This document shows, in pieces, positions 3,134-57,800 of a stretch of DNA of 64,000 nt. The notes under the pieces are model-generated. The model saw nothing but the letters and a program-made list of their open reading frames with translations. It had not been told where the DNA came from and did not search any database. Position numbers and translations under genes: made by a program. This DNA comes from Imbricaverruca yamaguchii (taxonomy: Eukaryota > Arthropoda > Thecostraca > Neoverrucidae), in the NCBI GenBank assembly GCA_034440575.1, contig JAOTOL010001151.1:245190-309189 (forward strand). Direction: 5' to 3'. Position 1 is the first letter of the stretch; the number at the start of each line of letters is the position of its first letter.

Positions 3134-3296
3134 CGGTCGGTTATTGGCTTTACGACACCTCGACCGTTGAGTCATGTAGCGTCGCCAACCTCTCACGCCG
3201 ATTGGTCGCGGGCGAAGAGTAGCGACAGGTGAGACTCGAACCCACAACCTTTCGATTGTGAGACAAGCAACTTACCCCTAGACCGCTCGTCCCCCA
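3134..3296 (-). mobile_element. tRNA-derived SINE, family C
   Basis: On the minus strand a tRNA-like head (B box GGTTCGAGTC, A-box-like GGTCTAGGGG) is followed by a body and a tail ending AAAGCCAATAACC. Flanked by near-identical 13-bp direct repeats ACACGATACTCGT (3121) and ACACGATATCCGT (3297), a probable target-site duplication with two differences. Confidence 0.85.
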
Positions 3297-9600: not shown

Positions 9601-12600
9601 GCCGTTCTGCGTCGTCATGCTCATCTGCCAAAGACTGAGGTTGCCGTCGTTGTCCGCCACGCCGAACTTGTTGCCCTGCGTGTTGAAGCGCACCCGGTTC
9701 ACCTGCAAAGTCGACCGTCAGTTACTGCATCGCGGGTCATTTTGCGACGTAGACGCATGCCGATCATGCGCCGAATAGTCGTGGCAAGACCGCAGTCCTC
9801 AGCAGCTGGCGAAATTCCAGCCCGAGTTCGTGCGGTAACGAGACATACCACGAAATACTCTCACAGTACCTGCACATTCGGTGGACAGACATCGGGACAG
9901 TAGCGGTGAATAGCAACGTGTCACAAGTATGTCCGGCCAGAGGAGCTTATCGGATTGGACGAGTCCATAGGTACGGAGGTCAAGTCAAAGGTGTGCGTCG
10001 CGTCAGAAGGATGTGCCAGTTTTTTATTTCGGCTTAACACGCGCACCGGAGGGCCTCTACTTAACGCGAACCAGAGTGGGGGTGGGGGCGGACTCCGCCC
10101 TCTCATAAGATCTCGGAAACTACTGCAGCTCGAAGCACAACATTTAGATACCCTCCAATTGTGTGCTTCTAACTTCAGATTACGGCTGTAATGGACTCTG
10201 CAGTACAAATGTAATGATTTAATGACCCCAATGCCTTCAAGATCCGATGAGATCGAGATTGGACGGCACACTGCGTCGCCGCACCTACCTTCGTGACCTA
10301 AAAGGCTAGTCGGCCAGGCGGCCGATCGGCCGACTTTGCACCACGGCGGTTCTGATATCTATAAACGGATTACATTAATGTAAAAACAGAAAAAAAAAAT
10401 ACACAGCATGCGGATGTATAGATGCATATGATGCGACAGGATTTGTTGCAGTTTGCAGCAACAAAGCCACAGGAATTCCTTACATTGCTCTGGCCCATTT
10501 ATAAGCCATCGTAAAAAAAACCGTGAGGGATGAGCGGATTCCGACGCCCATCGGTGCGTTTGATTGGGGCGCTTCAACCAACTAAGATGGATGTGAAGGA
10601 GACCAGCGTGGCATAGGTCGGATATGAGTAGTGTCGCATTAGTGGTGGGTGGGGCCTGCTGTTGTTGTGTCGTGTCAGTAATGTGTGGGGTCAGAGGGTT
10701 GTGTCGTATCGGTTGTGTGTGGGATCAGAGGGTTGTGTCGGGTCAGTGGCGTGTGGGATCAGAGGGTTGTGTCGGGTCAGTGGTGTGTGGGATCAGAGGG
10801 TTGTGTCGGTCAGTGGTGTGTGGGATCAGAGGGTTGTGTCGGGTCAGTGGTGTGTGGGATCATATGGTTGTGTCGAGTCAGTGGTGTGTGGGATCAGAGG
10901 GTTGTGTCGTGTCAGTAATGTGCGGGGTCAGAGGGTTGTGTCGTATCGGTTGTGTGTGGAGTGTGATGGTCGTGTCGGGTCAGTGGTGTGTGGGATCAGA
11001 GGGTTGTGTCGGGTCAGTGGCGTGTGGGGTCAAAGAAGAGGGAGCAGGGAGGGGAGAGAAGGGAGCGGAGTGGAGTTGTTGAGTCCGCTCACCTTGGCGT
11101 ATGTTCCGCTGGGCCGCGCCACGGCCACCGGGTTGTCGGCACCCCACTCCCGCACAGTCACGGAGCCGTCATGTGCACCTGTGATGTCTGAAACACGGGA
11201 CACAACTGATAAAAACACAGCACACAAGCTATCCGAAGCACACCATACACAGCCTTTGAAACGTGCCCATACACTAGCCGAAACGGGCGACACAAATTGT
11301 CCGATGTATACCGCCCGAGCCGTCTAAAATAAACATTACAGTCCCTACCAAAACGACCATGAACTTGCATAAAAAGTTACAACGGAAAATTATCGCTACT
11401 TCAAAAGCAGTGGCATGAGGCGGGGATGGCGTAGTGGTTAAGGTGTTGGGCTCTGGGTACCAAAGGTCCCGGGTTTGACACCAGCGCCGTTCGGGACATT
11501 TCCCAATCTCGCGGCCCACCGGCGAAAGTGTGGGCGGCGCCATTAGCCGTGAATGTGCATAAAGTGCGTCGTGAACCACCCAATTAACAACAGAAGCAAT
11601 AGCTTGAACTGAGACCACTTTTACTTTCGCCATGAACAGCTGCTTCCAGCGGCATAGGAGGAAGGTGCGTCATACAAAGTTCAGAGGCATCTGTTCATGA
11701 AAATATTTGGGGGAAGCATCCGATTGACCATGAGGTGAAATCATTCACGAGGCCCAGCTATCCGTTGTGCCATATCAGGTCCTGACAATATCGGTAAGTT
11801 CCTCATATAAAATCGACACCTGCGGAGGCACAACACCCATGGGAGCATCCACCTTTCCGTCTCCCACCGCACAATAGGGTGAAATTTCATATTATCCCCA
11901 TGATATTTGCATAAGATCTCAAAATACCCTCACCCCCAAAGTAATGCACTTATCCCCCGGCTGCTTAATGATCAAAACATGGTTCTCTTTAGATATCATG
12001 AAATTGCCTTCCCTATATAATCGGTAGACTTCAATCTTCTTTTAGAATAATCAGTGAGAACGGGTATTGCGTCTACGCCTCATCGAAAACGGATCGTCAC
12101 TGATCCAAACATTGCGCTCCATTGCGAAGGCACTATTACTGTCCTATGGGCAGATACAAGGGGAAGCACTGAGGGGCACGCGTTGAGCCACTCACTGTGC
12201 GCGAGTCCAAACCACTTCCCCATCAAAAACGGAGATGGGATCGCGGAGCGCACCCCTCCCCACCCTGATAAGATTTTCCCAGCCTTCATGTACACATTGG
12301 ACAAAACTTGGAGAATTCATCTGGGAACACTTGACAGCTGATCGGAAGTTGCTCCTCCCCCGCCCCGAAACCGACCGGCTGCATCCGCCCTTAAACTTAC
12401 CCGCCTAAATCAACAACCATGGGTTCAATTCCCAATGCGCGGGTACAGGAGGGGGCACCTAGGGGCATAGGGATTCCCTTCCCCATTGGATATGGTGGCT
12501 CCCGGCCGGCCAGGATTTGATGCCACAGAACCAGTAGCAGATGATGCACCCTTACGCCCAAATAATCAACCAATCAATCCGGTCAGAAAAACGCTACTTC

Positions 12601-21600: not shown

Positions 21601-24600
21601 CTGGAACTGGCGCCGGGCCCCAATTACAAGCGAGAGATCAAGCAGGGACACACACAACAGTCAGAGCAAAACGGTACCTAACCTGCGTTCTACCGGCGCG
21701 ACCAGTCTGAAACAGACGAGGGCAGCACGGTCACACAGCGGCCCGCCGTGACACGACGGCCACATCCCGCCCAGATGACACTGCATAACACGGCGGGGTC
21801 AGCCCAGACAGGCCTGGCACGTGACTGGGCCGCTACTGGTCAGAGTCGGCAGCCGAGCGCTGCGCAGCTACTTGCGGCACAGCTACTTGGAAGACTTTGA
21901 GAGACTCTCGTGTTTGCACACGTGAGAGAACACCCACAGCCCAGCCGTGTGACGTGACGGTGACTATACAGTAGGTGACTGTAGAGCACCCACAGCCCAA
22001 TAGTGTGACGTGACGGTGACTGTACAGCACGTGACTGTACAGCACCCACAGCCCAATAGTGTGACGTGACTGTGGCTGTACAACAATCGACTGGTGGTGG
22101 TGGATTGGAGTTTAGGGGCGCGTGGACATCTAGGGTCATTTTGCGCCCATGGGACAACAATCGACTGTACAGCACCGACAGCCCATCCGTGTGACGTGAC
22201 GGTGACTGTACAGCAGGTGACTGTACAGCACCGACAGCCCATCCGTGTGACGTGACGGTGACTGTACACCAGGTGACTGTACAGCACCGACAGCCCAATA
22301 GTGTGACGTGACGGTGACTGTACAGCAGGTGACTGTACAGCACCCACAGCCCAATAGTGTGACGTGACGGTGGCTGTACAACAAGCGACTGTACAGCACA
22401 CACAGCCCAATAGTGTGACGTGACGGTGACTGTACAGCACCCACAGCCCAATAGTGTGACGTGACGGTTGTTAGTGTGACGTGACGGTGGCTGTACAGCA
22501 GGTGACTGTACAGCACCCACAGCCCAATAGTGTGACGTGACGGTGACTGACAGCAGGGAAATGACAGTACAGACCCACAGCCCAGCAGTGTGACGTGACG
22601 GTGACTGTACAGCAGGTGACTGTACAGCACCCACAGCCCAATAGTGTGACGTGACGGTGGCTGTACAACAAGCGACTGTACAGCACCCACAGCCCAATAG
22701 TGTGACGTGACGGTGGCTGTACAACAAGCGACTGTACAGCACCCACAGCCCAATAGTGTGACGTGACGGTGGCTGTACAACAAGCGACTGTACAGCACCC
22801 ACAGCCCAATAGTGTGACGTGACTGTGACTGTACAGCAGGTGACTGTACAGCACCCACAGCCCAATAGTGTGACGTGACGGTGGCTGTACAGCACCCACA
22901 GCCCAGTAGTGTGATGTGACGTGACGGTGACTGTACAGCAGGTGACTGACCAAGCCGGCAGACCGAGCCGTCTGCGAGTAGGTGGGGCTGGGCACCAGGG
23001 AGCTGGCGGCTGAGCCGGGGCCGGAGTGGCCCGAGTAGCCGGCGCCGGCCGGACCCGGACCGGGCAGGCCGCCGGCACACTCGCTCGGCAGCTGAACCAC
23101 CAGGTAGCTGGAGGCCGGCATCGTGTCAGGGTCTCTGCCGGGCCAACGGTCAGGTCAGGTCAGCACCGGTCACAGGACATCGCCTCCGGGTCTCTGCTGG
23201 GCCAGCGGTCAGGTCAGCACAGGTTCGCCCGGTCTCTGGGTGTCAGGTCAGCCTCAGACTCGCCTCCGGGGTTCTGCTGGGCCAGCGGTCAGGTCAGCAC
23301 TGGTCACAGGACATCACCTCCAGGGTTCTGCCGGGGTAGCTATCAGGTCAGCACCGGTCACAGGACATCGCCTCCGGGGATGTCTGATCAGGTCAGTACA
23401 AGTTAACCAGTGGTAAGTGAAAATGCAGCGCACGCCGGGGATGTTGGCGAATATTGCACCAGACGTGCTAGACGTCGAGATCACATCCGTTCAGTTGTCG
23501 CTACTCTTCGCCCGCGACCAATCGGCGTGAGAGATTGGCGACGCTGCATGACTCAACGGTCGGTGTGTCACAAAAACCAATAACCAACCAACATCCGTTC
23601 AGTTGACAAGAACCAGGCAACAGTTGGTCCACGTACAGCCAGCATCGCGTCTCGGCTACGGACTGTCGCGGCGTCAGTCCAGGCCCACTGCGGTCAAGCA
23701 GGCGCTGATGCTGGCTCCCCACCGCTGCTCTGTAAACAGGCAGTGATGGGATACGACACGGTGTCGGGTCGTACCTGGTGGGATTCAGCGAGTCGTAGTC
23801 GGTCTCCGACTCCAGCCAGTCGGGTCCGCTGACCAGAAGCGCCACGTCCAGCTCCTGGATCTCCTTCTGGGTAGCCAGCACCATCAAGTTTGGGTTCGCC
23901 TGTCAAGTCACGCCATATTAAGTTAGATCAAATGAGCGCATGACCAGCATGGCACAGATTCTTGCCACAAGAACGCAAAACACGAACACAAGGCTGGCAG
24001 GAGCACATTAGATATAACGTTCACTAACAAAAACTGATAACAAAGCTTCCGCATATAGCAATTTCGTCCTTCTTAAAATCAGCCACGATCTTGCGGCTCA
24101 TCTAGCAGTAGATACAGGCAAGCACAGCACTGAGCGGGCAGAGGACTTGCTAGAGCACGTACAGGCCACAGAAGGTGAGTAGATCGGCAGAGTTCCGCCG
24201 GCTCAGCGGAGAGATCGGCTAGCCAAACACGCGTTGTCACCGGATCAGTACTCATCAGCGCCCACCTGGTTGATGCAGAAGGCGGTGATGGCGTCTTGCT
24301 CCTTGTGGATGATCTTGATAGGGTCGGCCGCCAGCTCGGGCTCGGTGTCGCCGACCGAGCCGCAGTTGGCCGCCAGCGTGGAGCGGCGCGAGAACAGCAC
24401 GCGGATAAAGGTGTCCTGGACAAGCTCCTGCTGCGCCAGTACCAGCCACAGCCGCTTGACGGCGCCCACGCCCGACCGGTCGGAGCTAGACGGCCACCAC
24501 ACGCGTCAGCCGATACATCACCCGCGTCAGCAGATACACCTCACGCGTCGGCAGATACATCACCCGCGTCAGCACATACGCCTCACGCGTCGGCAGATAC

Positions 24601-30600: not shown

Positions 30601-33600
30601 CGGCCGGCACTCACGTGGTCAGCTAACGCCGGCAGCCGGGCTAACTCTGATGGTCGCAGGCAACTGCGCCGCCGCCAAGGTCACCACTCACCCCATGGCG
30701 TCTTCGTCGTCATAGTCGGCGTCGTCTCCGTGCATGGACTCCACGTCCGAGTCGTACTCGAAGACCGAGTCGTCCTTGGCGTCGGCGGCGCGGGCCAGCG
30801 ACGGGCCCGTGTGGTCGATGGGCGGCTGTAACGGCGGCGGCCAGTCAGACGGATATGGACGGGGGGACACCGTACCGGCAGACCACGGCCGCGCACACGC
30901 AGAGGACAGTTCGGCGGCTAGATATTCGGGTGATGAATTAAGCGTACCCGACAACACAATGCAAACATTGGCTGGTTACAGTAGTACGTCACCTCCTCAG
31001 ATTGTCCGGGATTATTTGACTTGGCAATCCTGCACATGCAACACGTCTTAATATTCAGTGTAATCCAAACAAATATTGACACAAGGAAATAGTTACTTTC
31101 TTCTCACAATTCAACAAAGATTGACAATTTACGGTGGAATACAAATTCACAGCTAGTAGAAAAACCATTTGTTCATATGGTAATATTTCAAGATATGAAC
31201 ACGATACAAGCTAGGAATAAACGTCGCGCATGTCCTGGCTTTGCTTCTTTGAAATCTCAACAGTAGTTAAAAACCACACTAACAGACAAAATCGTTTTAC
31301 GTGAAAACAAAAATAGCATACATAAGTCGCTGCGGTATAAAAGCTACGTACGTCTACTCTCATAGACTACTAAACTGCCACGAAGACAAGTCCAAGAACT
31401 GCAAGCCACACCCTTACAACTACGAATGAAAGCGGTGCTGAAGAGACATTTGAAGTGAATGTCTAGCGTCGTGAACGACTGCGCACCAGCACTAACTTTA
31501 TTGATTATTTGGGCTTAGGGGCGCATCGCCAACACTAACTGTTAAAGTTCGTTCGCCACTCGCGGCATTCGGATGACTGAACCGGTATTCGCGGTATTCG
31601 GATGACTAATGTTAGGTTGAATGGCATTCACACGTGTGAATGCGGTACCGTGCTGGGCGCCCGATATGCTGGGCGGGCAGCAATAGGAAGCGGAAGTATG
31701 ATTCGAACAGCACGTGCACAACACGAACAATGATTCGAACAACACGAACAGCATACGACACAGTGAACAGCGTAACTTGACGTGCTGTGCGGACAGGAGT
31801 AAAAAGCAAAATAGGATCCGAACACAAACTGAGTGTCAATCCTTGCAGGAAATATTTAGCCAAGAATGTAATGTGCTTCACCATCCGCAGTTTCAGTTCA
31901 GGAAACTTTGAACGCCATAAACTGAATTGGAAACTGAATTGGAAACTGATAATTTGGTGTTATTCGTCGATAACAATGAGCTTAGCCATATCAAGAATAC
32001 TTGCTGCACCCTCTCCAATTTGCCAAGGTTCGGCAGCTCCCCACATTACGCTGCAGCATTCTAGTGCAGACCTGGCATGAACACAGCAAAACGCTAACAG
32101 ATATTTCCCTCGAGTCTACTTTCTGGAAATATATAATCAAGAGCCCGAGCGCCCGTGGGTTGCTTTTACGACGTTGGGTATGTGGAGCCGAAAGTTAAAT
32201 TTTAGTTCATAATTACGTCAAGGTCACGGGTAATGTCTTCACGCCACAGGAGAGAGCTTTTAATGAAATACACATATTAGCATCGGCTTGTTTTCCATTC
32301 ACATAGCATGGTGTACATTATACTGAGCGAAAATTCAATTTCTAGGTTTCGGATCACTGGCATACCCTTTGAAAATCGTCGTGAAGGATTGCTGCGTCAG
32401 TACAACAGCAAATTTTACGAACAATTTTGATATCGTCATGAAACATAAGGCTGATTTTGCTGACGCTGAAGCTGATTTTGACTAGAAGTTCTTCGTGATA
32501 TATGGCAAGGCAAGCATGAAAGGCGACATGGGTCAACCCTAAGTATTACCAGATATCACTGGACACTAGACTGAATCTTTTCCATTGATTAGTATACGCC
32601 GATATTTGCTGCCAAAGTATGATGAAAACCATCCCAATGTCGATCGAAAAATGTAAGAGTATCGTAGCGTATGAAGTAAGGTATGATTTACACTCTGAAA
32701 GAGAGCCGAATGGTTGGTGAAGATACAGTCGGTTTGCGGGCCTAAATATACTGAGTCCCAGGCTCTTTTTAGTGGTGTCACAAAATTCAATGAACACGAC
32801 CGTATTGAAACAAAGTCATGCTGGCCAATCAGGCGATATGGTGGTGTCTACACACATCGCAACATAGCAAAGTCATGCTGATCAGGCGACATGGTGGTGT
32901 CTACACACATCGCAACATAACAAAGTCATGCTGATCAGGCGACATGGTGGGATCTAAACAGACCACATTGCAATAAGCAACTTTTGAAGGATCCTATCGT
33001 AAATGAGGTCAGAGAAACATAGACAGGTGTCTTGATTAAACGATAGCATACATAGTTTTGCCATGGGAGCAGCCAATTCTTCACAACACCGTGAATGGTC
33101 CTTGCACTAATGCTGTCAGACCCGCATGTTTATTTACAAGGATATCACTCATAATGGCGGGAATGATGTTTTCATCGCGTTCTCCTCTCAATAGGTAGCA
33201 CACCATATGATGGGGAAAGGGCAAATATTCGCACGAAGCTCCGTAAACTTGGAAAAAATCGACTTAAAATGTTACCATTATCTCTATCGTCAATAACTTC
33301 ATCATCGGTGTCGATTAGCACAGCCAAGCACTGCTTTACCCGCCACCTTAGGCATCTTGAAAATTACCAAAACAGCTTATGGTTCGTCTTTAAGGTCATA
33401 AGTGGGCCGCATCAAAAAGCTACCATACTTTGCACCACACCCACGAAGTTTTGTTTTCAATGCTTGACATTTTGCATCAATACACTTGACTTCATTAACG
33501 AGCGTCTGAGCTCATGGTTTGCACATTTGTACGTGTCCAACGCACCTAGAACCTCTGCTGAGACATCACGCCAGTTGACATCAGTGTCCAGACTGTTGTA

Positions 33601-36600
33601 CATTGTGAAACATTGTAGCTTAGGGGTGCATTGGAAGACAAGTAGTAGGGAGACAAGTGGTAAGGAAGACCGAGTAGGCGGCCTCGTCAAAACAAGTGCA
33701 TAATTACATTTTGCTCACGTCACGGATACACACAGCCAATGTTAGGGCATGGATGGTGTTATTAACGTACCAGGCGAAACATACGTGGCGCATGACGTTA
33801 TTTTTCCAATACAACACTAAGATAAAGACGAATTAATTAAATACTATTCCAGATCGCATTCCACGCGATAAATACCCGCTTGTTCACCCATAAACGATAG
33901 TAACAATAGCATGTACACGACAAAGCACCAATGCTGTTAGCCAGTAATAAATGCCACGCGACCCCAGCGTAGTGCATTGACCTAGCATTGCTTACATTGG
34001 TACCATGCATTGACCTCTGCTGTGGGCGCTACATGACCAATGTAGTCGATACGCCCTAAAGCCCTAATAACTAACTAACTAACATTGACCTCTGCTTTTA
34101 ATCCATCTATCCCCGCAAAAGATGACCCCACTAAAAAGAAGCATAGTAAACACAGAGCGGAACGCGACCGTGCCGTTTCGCCGTCACTGACCTTCGCCAG
34201 CACCAGCTGGACGATGGACGTCTCTGGCGGCACGAACACCTCCCGGTAGGTGGGGTACTCGTCCCGCGTGGCTGACGTGACGCCGGCGGCCGGCGGACTG
34301 CCGGGCGCCAGCTGGCCCAGCAGCTTCATGTTCAGCTTGGCGCGCTGCTTGTTCAGCGACGACAGCAGACTGGTGTCGCCGGCTGGCGTCAACTCCGACA
34401 CGGGAGGCGTCTGGGGGTCGGCGGTGAATCAGCGGCGTAATGGCGTGCACGCGGGGGTTATGGTGTACGCTCGTCGGGGTAGACTTGCGGCCAAGCGTGA
34501 CATAATATGTAGACCCTGGTTGTTGTTGTTATTGGAGTTTAGGGGCGCATCGACTGCGTCGGTCATGTCTTTATGTCGTTTCTGTCTTTATGTCTTTATG
34601 AGAAAATGTGAACCGACATAAAGGCTGCGTCGTCAGGTTAGTTAGTTATTTGAGTTTAAGGGCGCTTCGACCAAAACATGATCATTTATCGCCCATGCTG
34701 CGTCGTCAGGACAGTGGAAACTGATCAGCCGGGCGGAGCCCTGACCAGCTGAGCTGTCGTGGCATGACGCGAATCATCTCTGCTCCGACCCCGACACGTT
34801 CGACATCGGCTCCGCCCAGGGACATCCGGTACGATCTGCGCAATCGAGGTCTGAACGAGGCGCACAGTTCCAGCCGGACCGACGCTGGCCCGAGTGAACA
34901 GCTGGGTGATGCCCGCACCCCGAGCCAGACATCGGGCGCTGTGTGTTCACACCCGCGCCCGCAGCGGTCCACTCACCGACGGCTGGGTGATGCCCGCACC
35001 CCGAGCCAGACATCGGGCGCTATGTGTGTTCACACCCGCGCCGACAGCGGTCCACTCACCGACGGCTGGGTGATGCCCGCACCCCGAGCCAGACATCGGG
35101 CGACGTGTGTTCACACTCGCGCCGACAGCGGTCCACTCACCGACGGCGTCACCACGTTGGTGGCGACGCGCAGCAGCCGGCGGACGCCGCCGCCGAACAC
35201 GGCCGACCAGAAGCGCGTGTCCACCTTGAGCCGCACCAGCCGGTACAGCAGCTGTGGGCGCGGCGACACACCGACCGTCAACGCCTGCACCGCTGATCGG
35301 CACGCAACGTCGCCGGTCAGCCGCAGCTTCAACACACCGACCGCGGCCCAACGCCACCTACTTCTCGGTCTGGCACACCAACACTGAGTGAATTAGTCAA
35401 CAGCGGCAAATGCGATGAACGTGCAGAACGTTCTGTACACAAGGTAAGGCACCGACGAGTGAAAGACTTCACACCTGTCACGCTTGCGTACTTTTGGATC
35501 ACTTTTGGAGTATCAGGAGAGCAATAGAGGAGAGGAGAGATGGGGCCAGCGGATCAGTTGGCGTGGAATTTGCGGTGCACAGCGGAAGAATAAATATTTG
35601 TCTGTGTCTGGGATCTGAATCACGACCCTTGTTGACGCGGGTTGCCGCGAATCGCGTTCCTTCTCACATCCTCGTCGCCACCGGTTCGGACGCCCTTGCC
35701 GCATCTCCCTCTCCCCAATGACCTGCATGCTCACCACACGTCGACAACTTCCCACCACACCATCTGACCTGCCCCGTGACTGCGCCCTCCCCGCCGCCAG
35801 AGCACCACTGACCCGGGCGTCGCAGCAGGCGATGGCCGTGATCAGCAGACTGGTGTACACGGCGGCGAACACCTCGGCCAGCAGCACCGTCAGCTGCGGA
35901 CCGTCGTCGTCCTTCTCGCGCGACAGCAGCGCGCGCAGTGACGTCACGCCCGGCCACTTGGACGGCGCCGAGGTGACGACGGGCGGCTCGTCCGAGCTGT
36001 GGCGCCAGCTGCGCGTGCCCAGGCCGGCCGTCAGGTGGCTCGACGACACCGTCACTATGCCGTCCACACTGTAGCCGACCAGTCTGTGGGCAGCGGTCAC
36101 ACCACATCAGTCTGAGGGCAGCAGACATGCCGTATCAGTCTGTGGGGAGCAGTCATATCACACTGAAGCCCACCGGTCTGTGGGGAGCAGTCATACCACA
36201 TCAGTCTCCAATTAGCAGTCATACCACATCAGCCTCCAATGAGCAGTCATAACACACCAGTCTGAGAGGAACGGTCATACCACACTGCAGCCCACCAGCC
36301 TAAGATACGTTATTTCATACTGCACCCGACACGTCTCTCCTAGGAGTTCGGAAGAAAATCGACATCACACTTTCACAGACCGACCAAAACATCTGGTCAG
36401 TTCCCACGAAATCCGCGTTTGTCCCCCCCCCCCCATCGGTTATAGGCGTCATCATTTCACGATAAACAGTGGAAATACTGCTGGGAATGACTATATCCAA
36501 AAATGACCAGTTAGACATGACACAGTCAGATTTGCGGCCTATTTACTATACAGGTTCAAATGACATCGATTGTTGAATTCATTTATATTCATATGAATAC

Positions 36601-39600
36601 CAGATAGTAACCTTTATGCATGCATGCTTGAGACTAATAACGTTATAAAAAAGATTCATGGCCCAGAACTGAAGCAAGTGCATCCAAGGACCGCACACAG
36701 AATATCCTTGGTCTGCGCAAACTAGCAGTATGCAACATCACTTTACATTGGCTTCATTTGGTTTGGATACTTTGTTGTGAAGGTGACAACAAACGGTTGA
36801 AAAACATTATGGATCGCATATATTAGATTATACATCCATCGACGAAAGGAAGCCAAGGCACACTTCAGATCAACGTGCTCTAGATGGTTGGTTGGTTATT
36901 TGGGCTTAGGGGCGCATCGACTGCTTCGGTCATACAGCGCCCATTGCTCTAGATGGTTGATGATGTCCTAATGTACAGCGCCACGTGTCCGGACAGTTGT
37001 ATTCGGAGTGTCCATCAGTCCAGCGGACTACTCACCCGTCCTTCTGTTTGATCTTGAAGGCGTCCGAGTCGCAGAGGGCCTGGTACACGCACGAGGAGAG
37101 CGCCACGGCGGTGTTCTTCAGCACCGCCAGCGCCGACTCGTCAACCACACTGGGAGACGGCGGCGCTGTCTGACCAGCACAGACACGGACGTCAGAGGAG
37201 GTGGTACTGCATTCCGCCAATGGGCAGCCGGGGACGATAGGGGGGTATTGCAGTCCATCGAGGGGCGGCCGCAGACGATAGGGGAAGGGGTATTGCAGTC
37301 CACCGAGGGGCAGCCGGGGACGATAGGGAGCGGGGGTATTGCAGTCCACCGAGGGGCAGCCGGGGACGATAGGGGAGGGGGTATTGCAGTCCACCGAGGG
37401 GCAGCCGCAGACGATAGGGGAGGGGGTATTGCAGTCCACCAAGGGGCAGCCGCGGACGGTATGGAAGGGGTACTGGATGAATGGGAAGCTTAGGAAGCTT
37501 TGACCCGTTTTGATTATTCGCGTGAGTGAGAGGTACTGCAGTTCACTGAGAGGCAATCGTAGACGATACGGGAGATGGTACTGTAATCCACCGAGGGGCA
37601 GCCGTGAACGATTGGAGCATATCGGTCCAATGAGGAACAGACGGAGGTGTTAGGGAGTCTGGCGAAGGGCAGCCGAGGTGTTAGTGGAATGCACTGCAGT
37701 AACTGAGGAACAGTCGGGTGCTAACGGTATGGTTTCTTGAAAGGACATTAGCGGCCATCAGCCCAGCCTGAGGACGACGGTTGTAAATCACGCCGCGACA
37801 CTCTTCGGGGCAGACGAATGCCAACAGCCGAGCCATCGAAGCAGCCGACGAGCGGTGCCGGGTACAGCGGTCGCATAAACACCGCCGTACCGACAACACA
37901 TCATGCTCCAGGAAGCATGATTGTCTCAACTGCAACGGACATCCGAGACTGGTGACGGAATTCCACACTGGTGACGACAGTGGCGCACCTGCGGCTGTGC
38001 CACTCACCTGCTGTGCGACCACGTGCAGCAGGTCGTGCGCCACGGTCTGCAGGTGGCGCACCGGGTCCATCACGACCGTCTTGTTGTTCGCCACGCTGGC
38101 CGACAGCAGCGGGATCATGGTGGGGAACGGCAGCGGACTGAGCAGCTGCTGGCGAGAAGACTCCTGCTGCAGCTCCTGCCGACACACGCACAGCCGTCAA
38201 CACGATGGAGAACGGCAGCGGGCTGAGCAGCTGCTGGCGAGAAGACTCCTGCTGTAGCTCCTGCCGACACACGCACAGCCGTCAACACGATGGAGAACGA
38301 CAGCGGCCGCCGAAGCGCGCAGAGCCATCAACACGGTGGAGAACGATAGCGGCTGAGTAGCTGCCGGCGGGACTCCTGCTGCAGCTGCTGCCGAAGCGAG
38401 CAGCCGCCAGCACGACACCAGCACCGCCGGCGCACCGGCAGCGGCAGAGCAACGGCAACCTCTGGCAGGTACCGTTCGGCTAACCGGACATGCGGGATGG
38501 GCGGTGGGGGAGCCCCGGAAACACCTGCGTTTCCACACCTCTGGCGAGGTAGCGCCAGTTCCCTGCCCGGTCGGGCTGACCCCACTGCGGGGACCACTAT
38601 CGCGGCGATTAACCAGACCACCATCACGGCCGCCGACCGACACCGTGCGTGAACGCCAGCAGCAGCGACGGCCGCAACCGAGACTTCCACACACAAGGAC
38701 TGGCCACTAGCCAACTGCCGCCGCCCGCACTACACCGCCGAACAGCCCCGATCGCCTACAGCACGATCCGTGCATCCAGCCGGCCTCACCTGCAGCAGGA
38801 GGATCAGCTCCATCCGGACCGAGGCCAGGGCGCCGCCGCCGGCTCCCTGCAGACTGCAGTAGCTGAGCAGGGTTCTCAGCAGAGCCTGGTTCGCTGTAAA
38901 CACGCCGACACATGGCTGTTTCCATGCGGACTGGGCTCACTGGGCTTGCGATGCACAACAGCCACAACTGCCAGGTCCGGAATAACCGGAGCCGATCAGT
39001 GCACACGGACGAGCTGCCCGGTGGTGACATCTGAATCAGCTAGCATTCCGGTTACAATATGCTACAAAGGCACGATTAATGACTTCAATTTTTTAAACAA
39101 TAGGTACAAAAAGCGCTAAAAATGCCACTAATGGTTAGAAATATTGCAATATGCTGCACTGAAACAACTCTATGTGCCACCTTTACAGTCACACCGGTAG
39201 CTATACAAAACCGAGTTAATTGATATGCTAAAATGTCATTCATCAAAGACATTGGACCTCAGACCAGAAACACACCAGCGAAATACTTGAGAAAGTCATG
39301 ACACAGTTCCACTTTCACTGAGACGCAATTCCGTCACTAGTATAAAACCAGGGCTACTGATTTCGGACATGTTCATAGGGGAAGGTGAAGTACTGCATCT
39401 GCCGACTGCCCATCATAGCTGAACGTCGCACACAAAGCTATGAGGATTCGCGGCTTCAGGTCGTCGCACCTTTAAGCCACGTTTTCCTGCGAGTAGCCCG
39501 GAGCAGTTTGGTTTCGAAGTCCATTTTGTCGGTGAGGAGGACGTCGTGGAGCGTGGGCCGCCGGTCTCCGGGGAAGAACGGTGTCGGCGATGTCACCTGC

Positions 39601-47400: not shown

Positions 47401-50400
47401 GTACTCATTGACTTTTAGAAAGTGAAAAATCGTTTTCACGTAAAAATTCCCGGTTCATTGATCGGAACACAGTTAAACAGCAGACTCAAGCTATTGCCTA
47501 TGATACAGTCTTGTAGTCATCCCAGATATACCCATTTGAAAATCCGTGGTACTCCTCCCGGGTAAAGCAGGGTGCTTGACCCAGTAATATACAATTACAA
47601 CTCCTCTTCATATCCCCAGCTACACCACACATGCACTAGAGCACTTCACCAGCTACACCGCACGAGATATTGCATCACCAGTAACATCACACCTAGCAGT
47701 ACATCACACCATCAAATGGCTAGCTTCATGACGTCTCAGATTCACAGCTTCATCAGACTTAGTGACATTCAGTCAGCGCGATAGATCCTGAGATCGGATC
47801 ATCATGCCGGATTTCTCAGATCGGGTCAGCACTTACGTGAGACCCTGAGAGTTCAGCTCGGCCTTCTCCTTGGGTGGCAGGCACTTGGAGAGGTAGGTGA
47901 AGTTTCTCATGGCCAGAACAAACCGCAGTCCACAGTCGTCCACGGAGTCTGTCGACGGCCAACCGTCTGTTACTGGATAGCATGTGGTACTGGCATAGGT
48001 ACTGGACCAACGCTCTGTCACTGGATAACATGTGGTGCTGGTATGGGTGTTGAACCAACGTTCTATCATCGGATAGCATGTGACTGCTGTAAAGCTGACT
48101 GCTATGAAATGTCAGGATGTTAGGGAGCATATCTCAGCCAAACACACCGTGGTACATCCAGTGTTTTCATATTGGGTGTTGGGATGGAGACTGGATCAAG
48201 CACAGTAGTTGAGTACGAACCACCTCATTTGGTCATCTTGCGGTCAATGGTCTATAAATTTACAAGGACGAACATTTGTACTGCTGATGACGGTAGGATC
48301 CGCTGACCGCCCTCATCTCCTGGAATCCTATTCTTCGTTCCAATCCAGTCCCGCAAAAAACACCTGATCTCACTACATCCGTTCAGTTCCACCGTATCCG
48401 TCCAGTTCAAACACCCGCTCACGGTCACAGCCCCTGATCAGCTGCTGGGCGGGATCCGAACCTGGACTGGGGGATGTGAGCTTCGACAGACACGGTACCG
48501 AGATTGGGGCCGGTGTGTTCGTGATCCCTTAAAGGGTGGATTCAGACACGGTACAGATACTGGGGAGCGCGTGATTCGCTGGGGTGTTTGTTTGTTTATT
48601 GGTTGGTTCACGACACACTTTATGCACACTCACGGCTAATGGCGCCGCCCACACTGTTTCGCAGGTGGGCCGCGGGATTGGGAAATGTCCTGGGTGGCGC
48701 TAGAGTCGAACCCGGGACCTTTAGTACCCATAGCCCGACACCTTAACCATTCGGCCATCCCCGCCCCTTCGCTGGGGTGAGACACGGTACCGAGATTGGG
48801 GCCGGTGGGTTTGTGCTCGCTGGCGGCGTCGTCGGACGAGTCGTCGAAGTGGTCGGCCAGGTCGGCGTCCACCGAGGCCACCGTGTCGGCCAGCGCTATC
48901 AGGTACAGCTGGTCGATCGACGTCAGGTCCGGCAGGTGGCAGTGGGTCAGCAGCTGGGTCAGCATCCGCGACTGCAACGCGATCGGGTCACGTCGAGTCA
49001 GGTCAGGCCATGCCAGCTGATAGGATCTGCGGCAGCAACCAAGTCGGGTCCGATTACGTAATGGCGCATGGGTCAGTAGCCAGGTTAGCACGGTCGATAT
49101 AAACCGAACCAGACCAAATCAAATCGCCTTAGATTAGGTCAGATTGCAGAAGCAGGTAACACATTTCCATTATCGCACGCCTGAAAGTACATCACACTGG
49201 AGTATGCCATGCATGCTTTGTATGATCTCTATGTACGTGACCCAACCAGAGGTAACATTACAAATATAGTCTGGTGGTGCAATCTGATCCGACATCATCC
49301 TCAGCCACGTCAAGTGGCAGCATTCTGTAAAATACACCAGCCACAGGAAGCCGCACCCAAGACGGCAGTGCAGTGTTAAAATAATGATTTCTCATTAGGT
49401 GTTTAACGTCTATTTGCATTGTGCAGAGCGCTGATTTTGAAAATTGACAAATGTTGTACTCGAAACGCCAATACCCAAATACAACTATGCATGTCGCTTG
49501 CTGAAATAATTTACTAGCTATCTAATGAAACAAAGAAAACAATACGGTCAATCGGGAACCTAGACAGAAAATCCGCTAAGGCTTAAATGCTCTCTTCTCT
49601 TCAATAATCAAGGTGTAAAACACGGTATCCCGATGAAATATACAAATATATACGCATATGTGAGTGTACGTGTGTACGTGTGAAATATACGATTCTTGGA
49701 GGATACATAATGGTGTACTTTTCGCATGCTGAGGTCAATCATTTGCTTAGCTTAGCAGTAGAGATCATTGCCCTGTCGATTACGTAGCCGCTTTGTTCGA
49801 ATGTTCCAGAACATGAAGCATGGACGCTTGTAGTACACTGGTCGGTTATGGAACCGTTTGTTCAAGAATACTCTCGAAAACAGGGAAGCTTCAGCGGTCT
49901 GCGTTTCGGCTGGACAGCGGTGCGGCAAGTTTGTGTGTAATGTCCGCTGAACACGGTGGAAGGGCAAGCTGGCCGTCTGGAGGCTGGGTTTTGTGTGGTG
50001 TCTGGACAGGCTGACCGTCTGGTGGCTGGGTTTTGTGTGGTGTCTGGCCGGGCTGACCGTCTGGTGGCTGGGTTTTGTGTGGTGTCTGGCCAGGCTGACC
50101 GTCTGGTGGCTGGGTTTTGTGTGGTGTCTGGCCAGGCTGGCCGTCTGGTGGCTGGGTTTTGTGTGGTGTCTGGCCAGGCTGGCCGTCTGGTGGCTGGGTT
50201 TTGTGTGGTGTCTGGCCGGGCTGGCCGTCTGGTGGCTGGGTTTTGTGTGGTGTCTGGCCGGGCTGGTCGTCTGGTGGCTGGGTTTTGTGTGGTGTCTGGC
50301 CGGGCTGGTCGTCTGGTGGCTGGGTTTTGTGTGGTGTCTGGCCGGGCTGGTCGTCTGGTGGCTGGGTTTTGTGTGGTGTCTGGCCAGGCTGGCCGTCTGG

Positions 50401-53400
50401 TGGCTGGGTTTTGTGTGGTGTCTGGCCAGGCTGGCCGTCTGGTGGCTGGGTTTTGTGTGGTGTCTGGCCAGGCTGATCGTCTGGTGGCTGGGTTTTGTGT
50501 AGTGTCTGGCCAGGCTGGCCGTCTGGTGGCTGGGTTTTGTGTGGTGTCTGGCCGGTTGCTGGCCGCGTCTGGTGGCTGGGTTTTGTGTGTGTCTGGCCAG
50601 GCTGATCGTCTGGTGGCTGGGTTTTGTGTGGTGTCTGGCCAGGCTGACCGTCTGGTGGCTGGGTTTTGTGTCGTATCTGGCCGAGCCGTACCGGACACGA
50701 CGCAAACGGCACCGTGCTGCGCTGCGCTGACAGGCCGAGAGTTCGAAAAAAATGAAAAGGTGGAAAAGAAGAGTGGGATAGTCATCGCATGACAGCTCAG
50801 CGCTAGGCTAGTTAACTAGTTATTTTGGCTTCAGGACACACCCATTGTAAGGATAGGAGGCTACTATGAAACAAGGGAGCAATGCCATGCACACTGCCTA
50901 CAGAACCGCTCATCAGCCATCCGCACCATTGTCTCCATTCTAACCGGCTGCCCTTCTTGGAGTTTAGGGGCGCATCGACTGCATCGGTCATGCAGCAACC
51001 TGCTGCCTTTTACCAGTGTCCAGTCTCCACATGACATGTACGATGATGTTGGCGCCAACTCAAATGACTATAAGTCTCAGCCCATGTAGGCTCCCATGCT
51101 TGATTAATTGATTGATTGTTTGGGCTTAAGGGCGCATCAACTGCTACTGGTTATGTAGCGCCCATAGGCTCCCATGCATAGCTCCCAAACTGACAGGGCT
51201 GACCCACCAGCTACCCGCCCCGTACCTGACAGGAGGTGAAGGCGCCGCCGCGGCACCCACCTCACGCGGTCCGAAGTGGCTCAGGCCGGCCGGCTCCGGC
51301 GAGGCCGACTTGCGCCGCTTCTTGGGCGTGGCGCCAATGATGTCCTCGAGCGTGGCCTCACCGTCGTCCGTTTTGAAGAGGTCGTCGTAGGTCTGTGACC
51401 GGACGGACGGACGGGCAGATGACAACTGACCGGAACGCAAACAGCACCAGCGATGGAACCGCTGACTTGGTCACTACTCGGTAACCAGGCAAGTGGTCAG
51501 TGACTGGACCAGTGGCCAGGTCAGTGATACTGATTGAAGCATACCTTCCGATTATGTACAGCAACCCTTCACAACCTGGTCACACGACATCAGTGCGACA
51601 CAAGCAAAATGTGAAGGCATCAGACGTTACCACGATAACTACAGCACGGAGCGACTCATATTCAACACTACACAGCAGCTCACCTGCGTTCCGGTAATGA
51701 GGGCACATTATGCTGAAGTGGTCTATTTCACTCGAATAGGTACAAACTTATGTAATCGGCAGAGGGCGAGACAGTGTGAGGCCAATGAAAACAAAAACAA
51801 AAACATTATTGCTAGGAAGTAAATATTCCCAGTAATTAAAACCCAGTTATTTTTCCACGACCATGGTCTCCTCACAACTATGCTCTTTAGCTTGCCTCAT
51901 TAACCTGTACCGGCTTCACTTAACCATATTTCCACAGGTTGCATCTCACTGTCCTACCTCAGATCTCATCTCGCTGTCTTGTCCCAGCCAGCATCCCCCA
52001 CTCGCCGTCCCGCCCCAGTCAGTAGCCCTACTTCGCTGACCTGTCCTAATCAGCAGCCCCACCTTTTTGTCCTACCCCAGATCCCACCTTGCTGTCCTGT
52101 CCCAATCAGCAGCCACACCTCGCTGTCCTGCCTCAAATCCTACCTCTCATTCTGTCCCAGTCAGCAGGCCTACCTCACTGTCCCGCCTCAGTCAGAAGCC
52201 CTACGTCTGTCCTGGCCCAACCAGCAGCCACACCTCTCTGTCTCGCCCTAGATCCCACATCGCTGTTCTGTCCCAGTCAGCAGGCCTACCTCACTGTCCA
52301 GCCTCAGTCAGAAGCCCTACGTCGCTGTCCTGGCCCAACCAGCAGCCACACCTCTCTGTCTCGCCCTAGCTCCCACATCGCTGTTCTGTCCCGGTCAGCA
52401 GGCCTACCTCGCTGTCCTGCTCCAGGCCGGGCGCCGACACGCCTCGTCGGTCCCTGTCGGCGGCCAGCAGCATCCAGAGTGGCAGCGGAGGCACCGAGTC
52501 GATCTCCTCATAGTCGGGCCGGATATCTTCCGTCTGCTGTCGCTCCAGTGGACTCCCTGCAGACCAGGCGCTGCAGTGAATCGTGTGCAATACAGCACAG
52601 ACACACGTACACGCATAAGGACGAGCCAGAACCAGCCACTCGCGAGTGCAAACATCACCGGTGCCACACGCCAATCAATATCCCGGCGGTGGGCAGGTTA
52701 GCTCCCGATGACGTACGACAATGCCGCTGGCGCCATGAGACACTATGTTGACCAGAGTGCGACATCTTCCTTTTTATGAGGTGTGCATCCTGAAGTTGAA
52801 TGATGCTATGAACATATTTGTGTTGCTTGGCGTCTGCTGCAACGCTGCTGCAACGCCGCTTGGCGTCTGCTGTCACATCGCCAAGTCAGTGGAAAACCAG
52901 CAAGTGCACCGGGGACATCGAGGCGGTACCCACGGTGTCAGGGGAGGAGCATCAGGGCACCACCTCATCGGCACCGATGAGGCATCAGGATGCACCAAAG
53001 GGGGGCATCATGATGGAACCGACGGTATCACTTGCCTGGCTGCAGTGAGACGGACATGCCGCGGCTACGCGCCATTTTCTCGATCATGTCCGGGTCGTCG
53101 ATGTCGACGTCAGCGGCAGACTCCAAGCGGGTCTGCCTCGACAAACTCCTGACAGACGTGTCACAGGTTAACGTCGGTTGGTTATTTGGGCTTAGGGGCG
53201 CTTCGACTGCTTCGGTCATACAGCGCCCATTCACAGGTTAACGTCATCATGTGCGCTATGTCCAACACATTTGACAACGCTGCCACCGGCCACTTCTGCA
53301 GTAGTATGGCTGTCTCGCCCTTGCAACGGCGCGGATGTGTCAGCATGTCGCCAAGCCGAATACGTTGAAACCTTTCCGGGTTGGTGAAACTGAAGCCTAC

Positions 53401-54763
53401 ATCCGAACACCTGACATAGCTGACTGGCCACCTAAATAATCCAACGAAGAATGGCTCTTAAGTGCTCCTGGGTTTTAGACATTGCGTGAGACGAAATGTA
53501 CGACCCTAAATATGCCAGGAGGTGCTGAGTTTACATCAAAAGTAGCGTTAGGGACTATGCTATATTACTCAACGTGTCGGCCAGGGGCCATCGTCAGGAG
53601 TGTCTGCCGCCATCACTCCTGAAGATGGCCCCTGGCCGAAACGTTGAGAAATATAGCATAGTCCCTAACGCTACTTTTGATGTAAACTCAGCACCTCCTG
53701 GTATATTGAGGGTCGTACATTTCGTCTCACGCAACACCTAAATAATCGATCATACGCGATTCGCCGCCTGGCGAACTGACCCGCCACTCACCAGATGGCC
53801 CACCTCACGTATCTGGCCATGTCAGCGAGCACAGACAACCTGGCCAACCGCCAGCCAGCTGACCCACCTGACATATCTGACGATGTGCGCCAGGATGGCC
53901 TTGACGCGCTTGACCTTGCCGCAGTTGAGCAGCTCCATCAGCTGCTTGGGGTGGTACTGCGGCAGCACGGGGAACGCGATCCGACTCGCCACGAACAGGC
54001 CGTAGTTGGGCATGTAGTCCTGCACCGCCTGACGCGCCGGCTCGGCAGCGCGCGACTTGAGCAGGTCCAGGTTGGCCAGCGACGACACCGACATGATGCG
54101 CTTCTTCATCGAGTCCGAGGCGTAGGTGAAGAGCTGCTGGTCGGTGAGGTTGCGCGCCTGCACGTAGTCGTCGGTGAGCGGCTGTGGGTCGCCGCCGGCG
54201 CGCCGCGACAGGCTCAGCGGCGGCATCTTCCACTGGCTGTACACGTGCATCTCGTTGTCCATGCCGACGATCAGCACGCCGTCGCGCACCCAGCCCATCT
54301 GCATGGGCAGCGGCGGCAGGCCGTCGGCCGACTCCAGCTTCACCTGGCGGATCTTCATCCACCTGCGGCCGTCAGCCGGCCGTCAGCGAGGGAGCGCACG
54401 GACAGACCGGACGGATGGACGGACGAGAGATCGCTACATGACGAAAGGGATGCGCTCACAGCATGGGGATCAGAACGGGCAGAACACCTGTCAACTGACC
54501 GCAACTGGACTCTCTTGGCAGCCATGTTGTATCAAATTTCAGCGGAAGTATGGGTTTTTCAGAGCAAATACAGGAAAGTTCTGCAATTCGGCAAATTACA
54601 CCAGAATTTCAGATGCGCGCGCTGCGTTCGGCAGACGAATCGAATTCAGTGCGCCAAATTTCGACTTTCGACATGAAAAAAAAAAATTTCAGATTCATAC
54701 ACTAATGCTTCTAGTTCTACTTCATTCAGAACTATTCTCAGTATACATACATATGTAAAAGAA

Positions 54764-54833: not shown

Positions 54834-57800
54834 AAAGAAGAGTAGTCTCGCTATCGACACGCGGGCAAACCATTGTCCTAATCCGAACCAAGCAGACTGT
54901 ACCCTACTGACCTGATCTGGTCAGGTGAGAACGAAGAGAGTGCAATTGAGGACGCCTTCTGCAGCATCGGTCGGGACGTCAGCTGGTTCTCCTTCATCGC
55001 CTTCATGTTGGCCAGCGTGATGTCACTGGAGACTCGCGTGAACATCAGGATCTGACAGTAGCACCATGTGTCAGGAAACTCTGACCGTGGCAACACCGTA
55101 AGTCAGAAGAGTCTGACCGCAGCAACACCACATATCAGTATGATATGACCGTGGCAACACCGTAAGTCAGAAGAGTCTGACTGCAGCAACACCACATATC
55201 AGGATGATCTTGACCGTGCGTCAAGTTGACCTGGTCGCAGCGAAGTCACGATGCTAGTGAGGATACTAAATGCCTACAACACAAGTAGACGACGGACAAA
55301 CGATGATGGAATGTCGTATTGATAATGAGCAGATGACGTAGATTACGTAGAGATAATGCTTAGTTTACGTTGTGATAATGAGTAGATGACGTAGTGATAC
55401 TTAGCAGATAACATAGTGAGCAACACAAGTGGGCATCGATATAATTCAGCCAACAAACCGTGTGAGATGTAGCTGGTGGATGTGTGGAACTACATTTGTT
55501 CGGGCACATGGAATGCCAGTTATTGGATATAAGTCGAGTGAGTGGTGCATTGCCACAATGGCTGCCATTCAGCCTACGGTGAAAATGACCAGCATACACC
55601 AGCATGCAAAGAGATGGGGTTATGCGGAGTGCAAACAAGGCTACACCGCACAGAGCCGGATACAGCAGTGGAAGAACATTACGAGGAGGTAAATATTCTT
55701 GAAGGCCGCACAAAAGGGGAGCCCCATGTTGCCGCCATGCCGCCGGTAAGAGCCGCCAGCGAAGCCGGCAGCTCTAGGCCCAGCTACAGCGGGACAGCGG
55801 CCCTGGCGGCGCCCGCGTCCTCTCAGACGCCCACCTTGCTGCCGACGCCGAGGGTAAGCATGTGGGAGCCGTCTTCAGTGGAGACCCAATCGATGCGCAC
55901 CAGGTGCTTGTGCGCCACACTGATGGAAGTGTTGCCCTCCTCGGCGATCGCCAACTTGACGGTGTTGTCGTTTATGAAGCTGGGCGCCGTGCGCATCTGC
56001 GGCGGCGACTCTGCCCAATGGCCGACAGGTGGCTCGAGTCAGTTCCACGGTTGGAGCCGCGATTCCCTTATGATTCATAGTCACATAGTCATAGCAGAAT
56101 AGCAATATACTGCAATCGATGTTGGGTAAAGTGAGGAGGGGTAAATACTTCTCTGAGGTGAAAATGGCCACATTCTAACCTGTTTCTAGTAATTTATCAT
56201 GCTTTCCGTGTCGATGCCAATATTCTTCCATGCATCCTCTATTACCCAGTCCAAGCGACGGTCAGGATCTACCATCCATGATTATCCCACCATGCCCTGC
56301 CATCCATCGCTGTCTAGCTAATGTACATCGAAGGCCCAGCACTGTTAAAGGTCACGTCGGGTTTTCCGAGGTCGAGTGCCCAGAGGCTGCAACATTTTAT
56401 GTTTCTTCAGTTTATGGTCAGTACGTCTTTTGGGAGAGGGAACACTTGTCCCAACAACTCACGTCTGTTGGGTCGGCCGTCGGGTGAGATAACTCACGTC
56501 TGTTGGGTCCGGTGTTGGGTGGGATGACTCACATGTGTTGGGTCGGGTATCGGGTGGGATGACTCACGTCTGTTTGGTCTGGTGGGATGACTTGTGTTGG
56601 GTCGGGTGTGGGTTGGTGTCGGTGTTTGGTCGGGTGGGGGTGGGATGACTCACGTATGTTGGGTGGGTATCAGGTGGGATGACTCACGTGTGTTTGGTCG
56701 GGTGTCGGGTAGGATGACTCACGTGTGTTGGGTCGGGTGTCGGGTGGGATGACTCACGTCTGTTGGGTCGGGTGTTGGGTGGGATGACTCACGTCTGTTT
56801 GGTCGGGTGTCGGGTGGGATGATTTACGTTTGTTTGGTGGGTATCGGGTGGGATGACTCACGTCTGTTGGGTCGGGTGTTGGGTGGGATGACTCACGTCT
56901 GCTGGGTCCGGTGTTGGGTGGGATGACTCACGTCTGTTGGGTCCGGTGTTGGGTGGGATGACTCACGTCTGTTGGGTCGGGTGTCGGGTGGGATGACTCA
57001 CGTCTGTTGGGTCCGGTGCTGGGTGGGATGACTCACGTCTGTTTGGTAGGGTGTCGGGTGGGATGACTCACGTCTGTTGGATCGGGTGGATGACTCACGT
57101 CTGTTTGGTCGGGTGTCGGGTGGGATGACTCACGTCTGTTTGGTCGGGTGTCGGGTGGGATGACTCACGTCTGTTTGGTCGGGTGTCGAGTAGAATGACT
57201 CACGTCTGTTTGGTCAGGTGTCGGGTGGGATGACTCACGTCTGTTTGGTCGGGTGTCGAGTAGAATGACTCACGTCTGTTTGGTCGGGTATCGGGTGGGA
57301 TGACTCACGTCTGTTGGGTCGGGTGGCGGGTGGGATGATTTACGTTTGTTTGGTCGGGTGTCGGGTGGGATGACTCACGTCTGTTTGGTCGGGTGTCGAG
57401 TAGAATGACTCACATGTGTTGGGTCGGGTGTCGGGTGGGATGACTCACGGATGTTGGGTCGGGTGTCGGGTGGGATGACTCACGTCTGTTTGGTCGGGTG
57501 TCGGGTGGGATGACTCACGTCTGTTTGGTCGGGTGTCGGGTGAGATGACTCACGTCTGTTTGGTAGGGTGTCGGGTGGGATGACTCACGTCTGTTTGGTC
57601 TGGTGGGATGACTCACGTATGTTGGGTGGGTTCGGGTGGGATGACTCACGTGTGTTGGGTCCGGTGCTGGGTGGGATGACTCACGTCTGTTTGGTCGGGT
57701 GTCGCGCGGGATGACTCACGTCTGTTGGTCGGGTTGAAGTCTGGTGTCGGGTGTGGGATGACTCACGTCTGTTTGGTCGGGTGTCGGGTGGGTGACTCAC

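What the first reader, a model, noticed from the sequence alone, without database searches (positions are those of the whole stretch)
53161..53245. Ultrashort (~55 bp) retroposon with 13-15 bp target-site duplications
At least six complete copies (22094, 34022, 34638, 36891, 51100, 53176) share both ends and sit between perfect direct repeats, each different. In tail-last orientation the element starts ATGGGCGC, forms a GGGCGC/GCGCCC hairpin, continues CTAAGCCCAAATAA and ends in a variable simple repeat (AACC, AACT, ATCA, ACC). There is no tRNA head and no clear pol III promoter. Variable simple tails plus 13-15 bp duplications are the mark of LINE-type target-primed insertion. The constant start argues against random 5' truncation. 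It would be among the shortest mobile units known.
Basis: partly seen in the sequence, partly recalled or inferred. Interest (0 to 1): 0.88.

Follow-up and report, generated by a model that had tools for sequence, protein, structure and literature searches.

The report
Tail-only LINE retroposon, about 55 bases
A parasitic gene (a LINE) in this genome, probably an animal's, has left not only ordinary copies of itself but many copies of just its last ~55 bases, most of them starting at the same base, which points to a short RNA made from the end of the parent's message.

Summary
The window has seven copies beginning at (A)TGGGCG between 13-17 bp duplications (six perfect, one with a mismatch), plus an old copy and shorter pieces. 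The unit is the last ~55 nt of a LINE with endonuclease and reverse transcriptase: stem-loop, TAAGCCCAAATAA, (CCAA/CTAA)n. Of 59 distinct insertions sampled by the 3' half alone, 32 begin at (A)TGGGCGC, 16 match less, 11 are LINE copies reaching 179 nt or more upstream, none ends in between. A second sample of 39 gives 26 short and 13 LINE, two of these ending near -115. A second LINE family with a different 3' region has short copies with the same start. So the short copies are not a smooth truncation tail; they look like copies of a discrete ~55-nt RNA whose 5' end lies at the base of the stem-loop, inserted by LINE target-primed reverse transcription. How that RNA end arises (trimming, cleavage or a separate source gene) is not shown.

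The parts
53176..53230 (-). short retroposon copy named in the finding, ATGGGCGC ... CCAACC, 55 nt
   Evidence: 100% matches over 55-59 nt elsewhere in the genome
53231..53245 (-). 5' copy of the 15-bp target-site duplication GACGTTAACCTGTGA
53161..53175 (-). 3' copy of the 15-bp target-site duplication
53223..53228 (-). 5' strand of lower stem, GGGCGC
53196..53201 (-). 3' strand of lower stem, GCGCCC
53182..53195 (-). conserved tail CTAAGCCCAAATAA shared with the LINE 3' end
53176..53181 (-). 3' simple repeat CCAACC at the junction with the duplication
36891..36944 (-). short copy; duplications 36876-36890 and 36945-36959 (15 bp)
34638..34696 (-). short copy; duplications 34624-34637 and 34697-34710 (14 bp)
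22094..22153 (-). short copy of the second tail type (ACTCCAATCCACC) with three extra 5' bases CCC; duplications 22080-22093 and 22154-22167 (14 bp)
51100..51164 (-). short copy; duplications 51087-51099 and 51165-51177 (13 bp)
34022..34082 (+). short copy; duplications 34008-34021 and 34083-34096 (14 bp)
12517..12570 (+). old, diverged copy that appears to share the start; no clear duplication
50954..51000 (-). copy lacking about the first 6 nt of the hairpin; 11-bp duplication with one mismatch
31501..31534 (-). copy reduced to the 3' half (~31 nt); 12-bp duplication with one mismatch
34528..34568 (-). partial copy beginning in the loop; no duplication found
3134..3290 (-). tRNA-like SINE whose 3' end has the same architecture (stem, GCTACATGAC...GGTCGA, stem, TAAAGCCAATAACC); used as control (borders approximate)
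23498..23590 (+). 5'-truncated copy of the same SINE with its tail, between repeats ACATCCGTTCAGTTG (read by eye)

Best explanation
The units are full copies of a discrete RNA of about 55 nt that is the 3' end of LINE RNA: the stem-loop that (by analogy with stringent-type LINEs) the LINE's reverse transcriptase binds, plus the terminal repeats at which it starts. Shown: identity with the LINE 3' end, target-site duplications, the same start at (A)TGGGCGC in at least two LINE families, and a gap in 5' ends just upstream. Inferred: the rest of the LINE RNA is removed up to the base of the stem-loop (5'-to-3' decay halted by the bound protein or structure, or a cut at the UUA-UGGGCGC junction), the bound stub stays competent for target-primed reverse transcription, and the enzyme runs off its 5' end.
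For: LINE: L042 4873-5736 carries Exo_endo_phos_2 (2.9e-19), and 6841-7647 carries RVT_1 (8.4e-10); 6101-6673 matches RVT_1 just under its cut-off (27.5 against 29.6 bits). Its 3' end reads ...ACATTGTTA|TGGGCGCTGTATGACC.... 5' ends, sample A: first 70 of 100 listed of 1353 exact matches to a pattern holding only the 3' half; 59 after dropping 11 duplicates; 32 at the start, 16 with shorter matches, 11 LINE reaching 179 nt or more, none between. If ends were locally even, 16 of 16 within 21 of 171 nt has chance 2.7e-15; with only the eight confirmed by a duplication, about 5e-8 (my arithmetic). Sample B: 39 of the 41 non-window matches (two weak ones left out), 26 at the start, 13 LINE. Genome-wide 896 exact hairpins against 160 exact LINE junctions. 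Insertions: 59 listed with duplications of 10-18 bp, commonest 14 (three pairs are copies of one site); where one extra base lies before TGGGCGC it is A, the LINE's own base, in 25 of 28 (binomial 1e-12). Second family: 17 distinct of 20 fetched of 897: 8 LINE, 7 short (4 with a duplication at the start), 2 other. Tail and hairpin variants are linked in short copies (GAA-CTAA 8, GAA-other 5, GAT-CTAA 0, GAT-other 35; p = 3e-6), and GAA-CTAA, GAA-CCAA and GAT-CCAA, the only combinations seen in the 11 LINE copies, all occur in short copies. L107 shows repeated partial recopying of the 5' end.
Against: Variant frequencies differ: GAT in 35 of 48 short copies against 2 of 11 LINE copies (p = 0.001); in family 2 the AAAGTGACCCTT form is in 5 of 7 short copies but 1 of 8 LINE copies. 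Both could mean a separate source for the short copies. A few copies end a little upstream: L115 by 5-6 LINE-like bases, and L020 and L040 near -115. Several short copies carry extra bases at the 5' joint ('up' class, 6 of 70). In family 2, three of seven short copies have no duplication at the exact start. No RNA data: neither the ~55-nt RNA nor protein binding has been seen. Enzymes that halt at a structure often leave a few extra bases (recalled), which does not fit the exact end very well.
Confidence: 0.58

Rival explanations
1. A true minimal SINE-like family: some short copies sit where they are transcribed from their own first base and serve as source genes, using the LINE machinery in trans. 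It arose from the LINE tail, perhaps several times.
For: Skewed variants in short against LINE copies; high copy number: 25 unselected hits of all kinds in 184,783 flanking bases, one place counted twice, about 13.5 per 100 kb, which would be of the order of 1e5 in 767 Mb if typical.
Against: Little room for a pol III promoter (from length; not scanned); the same start in two LINE families and linked variants shared with LINEs would need several independent births with the same border.
Confidence: 0.25
2. The RNA template is the whole LINE RNA, but reverse transcription tends to stop once the stem-loop has been copied, for instance because the enzyme loses its RNA anchor.
For: The border lies at the base of the recognised structure in both families sampled; the enzyme might leave when its binding site has been unwound (inference).
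Against: LINE copies run through the border in 11 of 59 and 13 of 39 cases; the ten SINE tails found all keep SINE body upstream; no unusual structure upstream in the LINE (z = 0.07 for 231 nt, the hairpin being one of the few features shared by minimum-energy and centroid structures).
Confidence: 0.13
3. Ordinary 5'-truncated LINE copies.
For: Truncated LINE copies exist, e.g. L020 (-116, 13-bp duplication) and L075 (-438, 14-bp duplication).
Against: One position holds 32 of 59 ends, and the next ~175 nt upstream hold none in sample A and two of 39 in sample B.
Confidence: 0.03
4. A DNA-type foldback element or MITE.
For: Short, palindromic, flanked by duplications.
Against: The stem-loop covers only part of the unit and the other end is a variable simple repeat; duplications vary from 10 to 18 bp; it coincides with a LINE 3' end.
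Confidence: 0.01

Closest known systems
3' tails of stringent-type LINEs (eel UnaL2, zebrafish ZfL2-1/ZfL2-2)
   Same: A stem-loop and terminal repeats at the LINE's 3' end; in ZfL2 the stem-loop is needed for retrotransposition and the ZfL2-2 protein binds it (PMC4176376, passages read).
   Different: Here the tail alone is found as many free-standing insertions with a fixed 5' end; sequences were not compared here.
SINEs with LINE-derived tails
   Same: Short, no ORF, LINE tail, target-site duplications; SINE/LINE tail sharing is described in PMC3747384 (passages read).
   Different: No head from a small RNA was found; about 55 nt, nothing but the tail.
The tRNA-like SINE of the same genome (window 3134-3290, 23498-23590)
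   Same: Same tail plan, AATAACC and CCAA-type repeats.
   Different: The ten tails found in the held sequence all keep SINE body upstream.
5'-truncated LINE copies, e.g. Bov-B
   Same: Same 3' end, duplications.
   Different: Many Bov-B copies are truncated to under 1 kb (PMC13295347, passages read); here most short copies share one 5' end.
Tailless retropseudogenes
   Same: Short retroposed RNA pieces (mentioned in PMC3747384, passages).

Membership tests
SINE | 5' head from a small pol III RNA | tested here: not met
   The whole unit coincides with the LINE 3' end; no Rfam hit in the window or the LINE 3' region. ARAGORN found no tRNA, but it also missed the tRNA-like SINE heads of this window, so that test is weak; A/B boxes were not scanned
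SINE | LINE-derived 3' tail, no ORF | tested here: met
   Identity with the LINE 3' end over ~55 nt
SINE | Target-site duplications of LINE type | tested here: met
   10-18 bp, commonest 14, in 59 listed insertions
Stringent-type LINE tail | 3' stem-loop kept by compensating changes | tested here: inconclusive
   Upper-stem pair G-C to A-U in 5 of 25 rows; 8 double-change cells against a shuffled mean of 2.5 (0 of 500 reach it), but pairs with double change (121/500) and further pair types (465/500) are not above shuffles; first RNAalifold run found only 3 pairs
Stringent-type LINE tail | Terminal tandem repeats at the 3' end | tested here: met
   CCAA, CTAA, CCA repeats
Stringent-type LINE tail | LINE protein binds the stem-loop and needs it | not testable with these tools
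   Needs protein and RNA work
5'-truncated LINE copies | Variable 5' ends spread along the element | tested here: not met
   32 of 59 at one border, none in the next ~175 nt; sample B 26 of 39 at the border, two near -115
LINE (parent) | Endonuclease and reverse transcriptase domains | tested here: met
   PF14529, PF03372, PF00078 on L042 and L044, in broken open stretches
LINE (parent), I/Jockey-like group | RNase H domain after the reverse transcriptase | tested here: inconclusive
   No Pfam hit; weak alignment (E = 2e-4, 84 positions) to a C-terminal part of a protein annotated with PF00078 and PF00075; group name recalled, not tested by a tree
MITE/foldback | Terminal inverted repeats and fixed-length duplication | tested here: not met
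   Stem ends before the tail; duplications 10-18 bp

The most novel reading that the evidence does not exclude
In this species LINE RNAs of several families are regularly trimmed or cut to the 55-nt stub that holds the reverse-transcriptase anchor and primer site, and the stub is the most frequent substrate of LINE insertion: a natural, promoterless, minimal retroposon reduced to its recognition element, which any host transcript carrying a copy could re-launch through the same processing.
Probability: 0.35. Interest if true: 0.85.

Novelty: new variant of a known kind. Interest (0 to 1): 0.7.

Why it matters
It would suggest that in nature a LINE tail alone is enough to be inserted, and would make the fate of LINE RNA (full length, truncated, stub) readable from genome copies. 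It also bears on how SINEs start: a tail-only unit could be the step before a head is gained. Units this short are easily overlooked in repeat annotation (my expectation), although they may reach about 1e5 copies here (rough extrapolation).

Tried and rejected
Rfam on the window at gathering thresholds and on 301 bases of a LINE 3' region at E up to 1: no hit, so no known ribozyme or RNA family. Exact pattern in viral contigs: 0; in prokaryote genomes: 1, taken as chance. RNAalifold on the first alignment found only three pairs; truncated rows dilute the lower stem. LINE-length copies as the sole source with random truncation: rejected. A strong upstream RNA block: not seen in one LINE copy. 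Papers: ten searches, listings only. The nine other than (which asked about barnacle genomes, an untested guess at the host) showed no tail-only retroposon in their listings. The library is open-licence PMC only, so absence from print is not claimed. Species: not given and not determined.

Limits of the counts. X-drop ends under 20 nt (16 of 59) include at least L084, and probably L096, which look full-length with point changes; eight have a duplication inside the hairpin. Six of the 70 sites have extra bases before the start or odd 5' joints ('up' class). Samples A and B share two places (L041 = L058, L015 = L079). Sample B is ranked by similarity to one young copy. Sample A is the first places by contig number and exact matches only, hence mostly young copies. 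The offsets were searched only within 3 nt of the start, and one of its rows (L093) is a copy cut inside the hairpin. The hexamer count covers 23 of 24 LINE copies given, two of the 24 being one place. Dimer (end-to-end) and GAT-LINE counts were asked for but did not complete.

Full report
The window lies in a 767-Mb eukaryotic genome of 1430 contigs, which I take to be an animal's; two open stretches match the RAVE C-terminal family PF12234 (the DmX link is recalled).

OBSERVATION. Each of the six listed copies reads, tail last, (A or G)TGGGCG..., a loop, a matching 3' stem strand, a conserved stretch (TAAGCCCAAATAA or a variant) and a simple repeat, between perfect repeats of 13-15 bp. A seventh copy (27205-27269) has a 17-bp repeat with one mismatch. 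An old copy (12517-12570) appears to share the start. Three more places (50954-51000, 31501-31534, 34528-34568) are shorter than the unit. Random places in this repeat-rich window give a perfect repeat of 13 or more in 46 of 400 trials, so a single duplication is not decisive here; six of six are.

PARENT. Of 20 genome hits fetched first, 15 are short and five (L003, L017, L018, L019, L020) continue upstream into a common sequence ending ...CATTGTTA|TGGGCGC or a close variant. The wider stretch of L003, L042, reads back into an endonuclease (PF14529, PF03372) and pieces of a reverse transcriptase. The unit is therefore the last ~55 nt of a LINE. The nine closest proteins are unnamed, at 52-57% identity over 72-96% of the query. 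An RNase H part is suggested only weakly.

5' ENDS. I sampled by a 27-base pattern holding only the 3' half of the hairpin and the tail (1353 exact matches, reversed control 0), took the first 70 of the 100 listed places and dropped 11 duplicates (clusters, two of which I merged because they share an upstream repeat). Of 59, 31 match the LINE up to TGGGCGC or 1-3 nt beyond, and L059, whose match runs 5 nt beyond, has its duplication at the start, giving 32. Sixteen match for less (eight with duplications inside the hairpin, at least one simply mutated). Eleven continue as LINE for 179 nt (the end of the flank held) to more than 1400 nt. None ends between. Of 39 hits (its 42 matches less the window and two weak ones), 26 stop at the start and 13 are LINE; two of the 13 (L020, L040) end near -115, L020 with a 13-bp duplication. 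So ordinary truncated LINE copies exist but are few near the tail. Genome-wide exact counts agree: 896 whole hairpins against 160 with the LINE's TTGTTA in front. As 18 of 23 LINE copies have that exact hexamer, roughly a quarter of whole hairpins would be LINE.

THE START BASE. In 59 listed insertions with duplications (three pairs are copies of one site), the border falls 28 times one base before T, and that base is A in 25. In the LINE, TTA before the stem can pair with TAA after it; TTA stands there in 19 of 23 family-1 and 8 of 8 family-2 LINE copies. The border lies within this basal pairing.

SECOND LINE FAMILY. The 22094/27205 tail type (ACTCCAATCCACC) has 897 exact matches for its core. 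Of 20 fetched, 17 are distinct: eight lie in a different common upstream sequence ending ...GATTACATTCCAGTTA|TGGGCGC or a variant, seven are short (four with a duplication at the start; L115 is 5-6 nt longer; L132 and L134 lack one at the start), two are other. I infer a LINE here from the shared upstream sequence; its coding part was not fetched. The same border with a different 3' region argues for a cause tied to the stem-loop. In family 1, hairpin and tail variants are linked in short copies, and the three combinations seen in LINEs all recur in short copies. Against a simple by-product: variant frequencies differ between short and LINE copies in both families, so a separate source for part of the short copies remains open.

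CONTROL. The tRNA-like SINE of this genome ends in a tail of the same plan. All ten of its tails found in the held sequence (up to six edits) keep SINE body upstream, against 32 of 59 tail-only for the LINE type (p = 0.001). Ten is few, and its partner LINE is not known.

STRUCTURE. Shuffle tests favour the hairpin in 5 of 7 window copies. On 25 diverse rows the two-stem model pairs 90.4% of cells (shuffled 88.6%), and double-change cells exceed shuffles (8 against 2.5; 0 of 500), mainly one upper-stem pair, G-C to A-U in five rows; two other measures do not exceed shuffles. That is support, not proof.

MECHANISM. Target-primed insertion by a LINE follows from the duplications (commonest 14 bp), the variable terminal repeats, and duplications that start with C or A in 49 of 59, matching the tail. 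From work on stringent-type LINEs (passages of PMC4176376), the stem-loop is where the LINE protein binds. My reading is that LINE RNA is reduced to the protected or cut stub, which is inserted whole. The stub RNA itself, its 5' chemistry and the enzyme are inferred. L107, with stuttered recopying of the 5' end between duplications, fits run-off at an RNA end.

NOVELTY. Tail sharing between LINEs and SINEs is well known (PMC3747384, passages). Tail-only units with a fixed start did not appear in the listings of nine searches of an open-licence library, which is a weak test. I rate it a new variant of a known kind.

Noticed in passing
window 53474-53602 and 53614-53742: A 129-nt inverted repeat, 94% complementary with an 11-nt spacer, lies about 230 bases from the element of the finding; possibly a foldback element or MITE.
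   Followed up: no
window 6658-6956 and 29176-29474; 11419-11590, 48592-48765, 59368-59498: What look like two more tRNA-like SINE families, besides the one at 3134-3290.
   Followed up: partly
window 46348-46803 (-) and 53822-54382 (-): Open stretches matching RAVE C-terminal family PF12234; the short copies at 51100 and 53176 lie between them.
   Followed up: no
G000 contig C665, 14858-23441: Five LINE-type junctions spaced 2135-2139 nt apart: a tandem array that carries the LINE 3' end.
   Followed up: no
L050, L106, L110, L111, L112, L113: Six LINE copies share the same downstream flank (TGGGCGTTGAG), four of them on one contig: segmental copies or a preferred target.
   Followed up: partly
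L116, L117, L126, L130: After the family-2 tail all four continue into much the same downstream sequence, two with LINE-2 upstream and two with another upstream sequence: another repeat seems to carry this tail.
   Followed up: no
L020, L040: Short truncated LINE copies ending near -115; L020 has a 13-bp duplication, showing that ordinary truncation also happens.
   Followed up: yes
window, many places (e.g. 56440-58063, 15233-16749, 49829-50668): Many minisatellite arrays (periods of 9 to 73 bases) in 64 kb, which weakens single-site duplication tests.
   Followed up: partly
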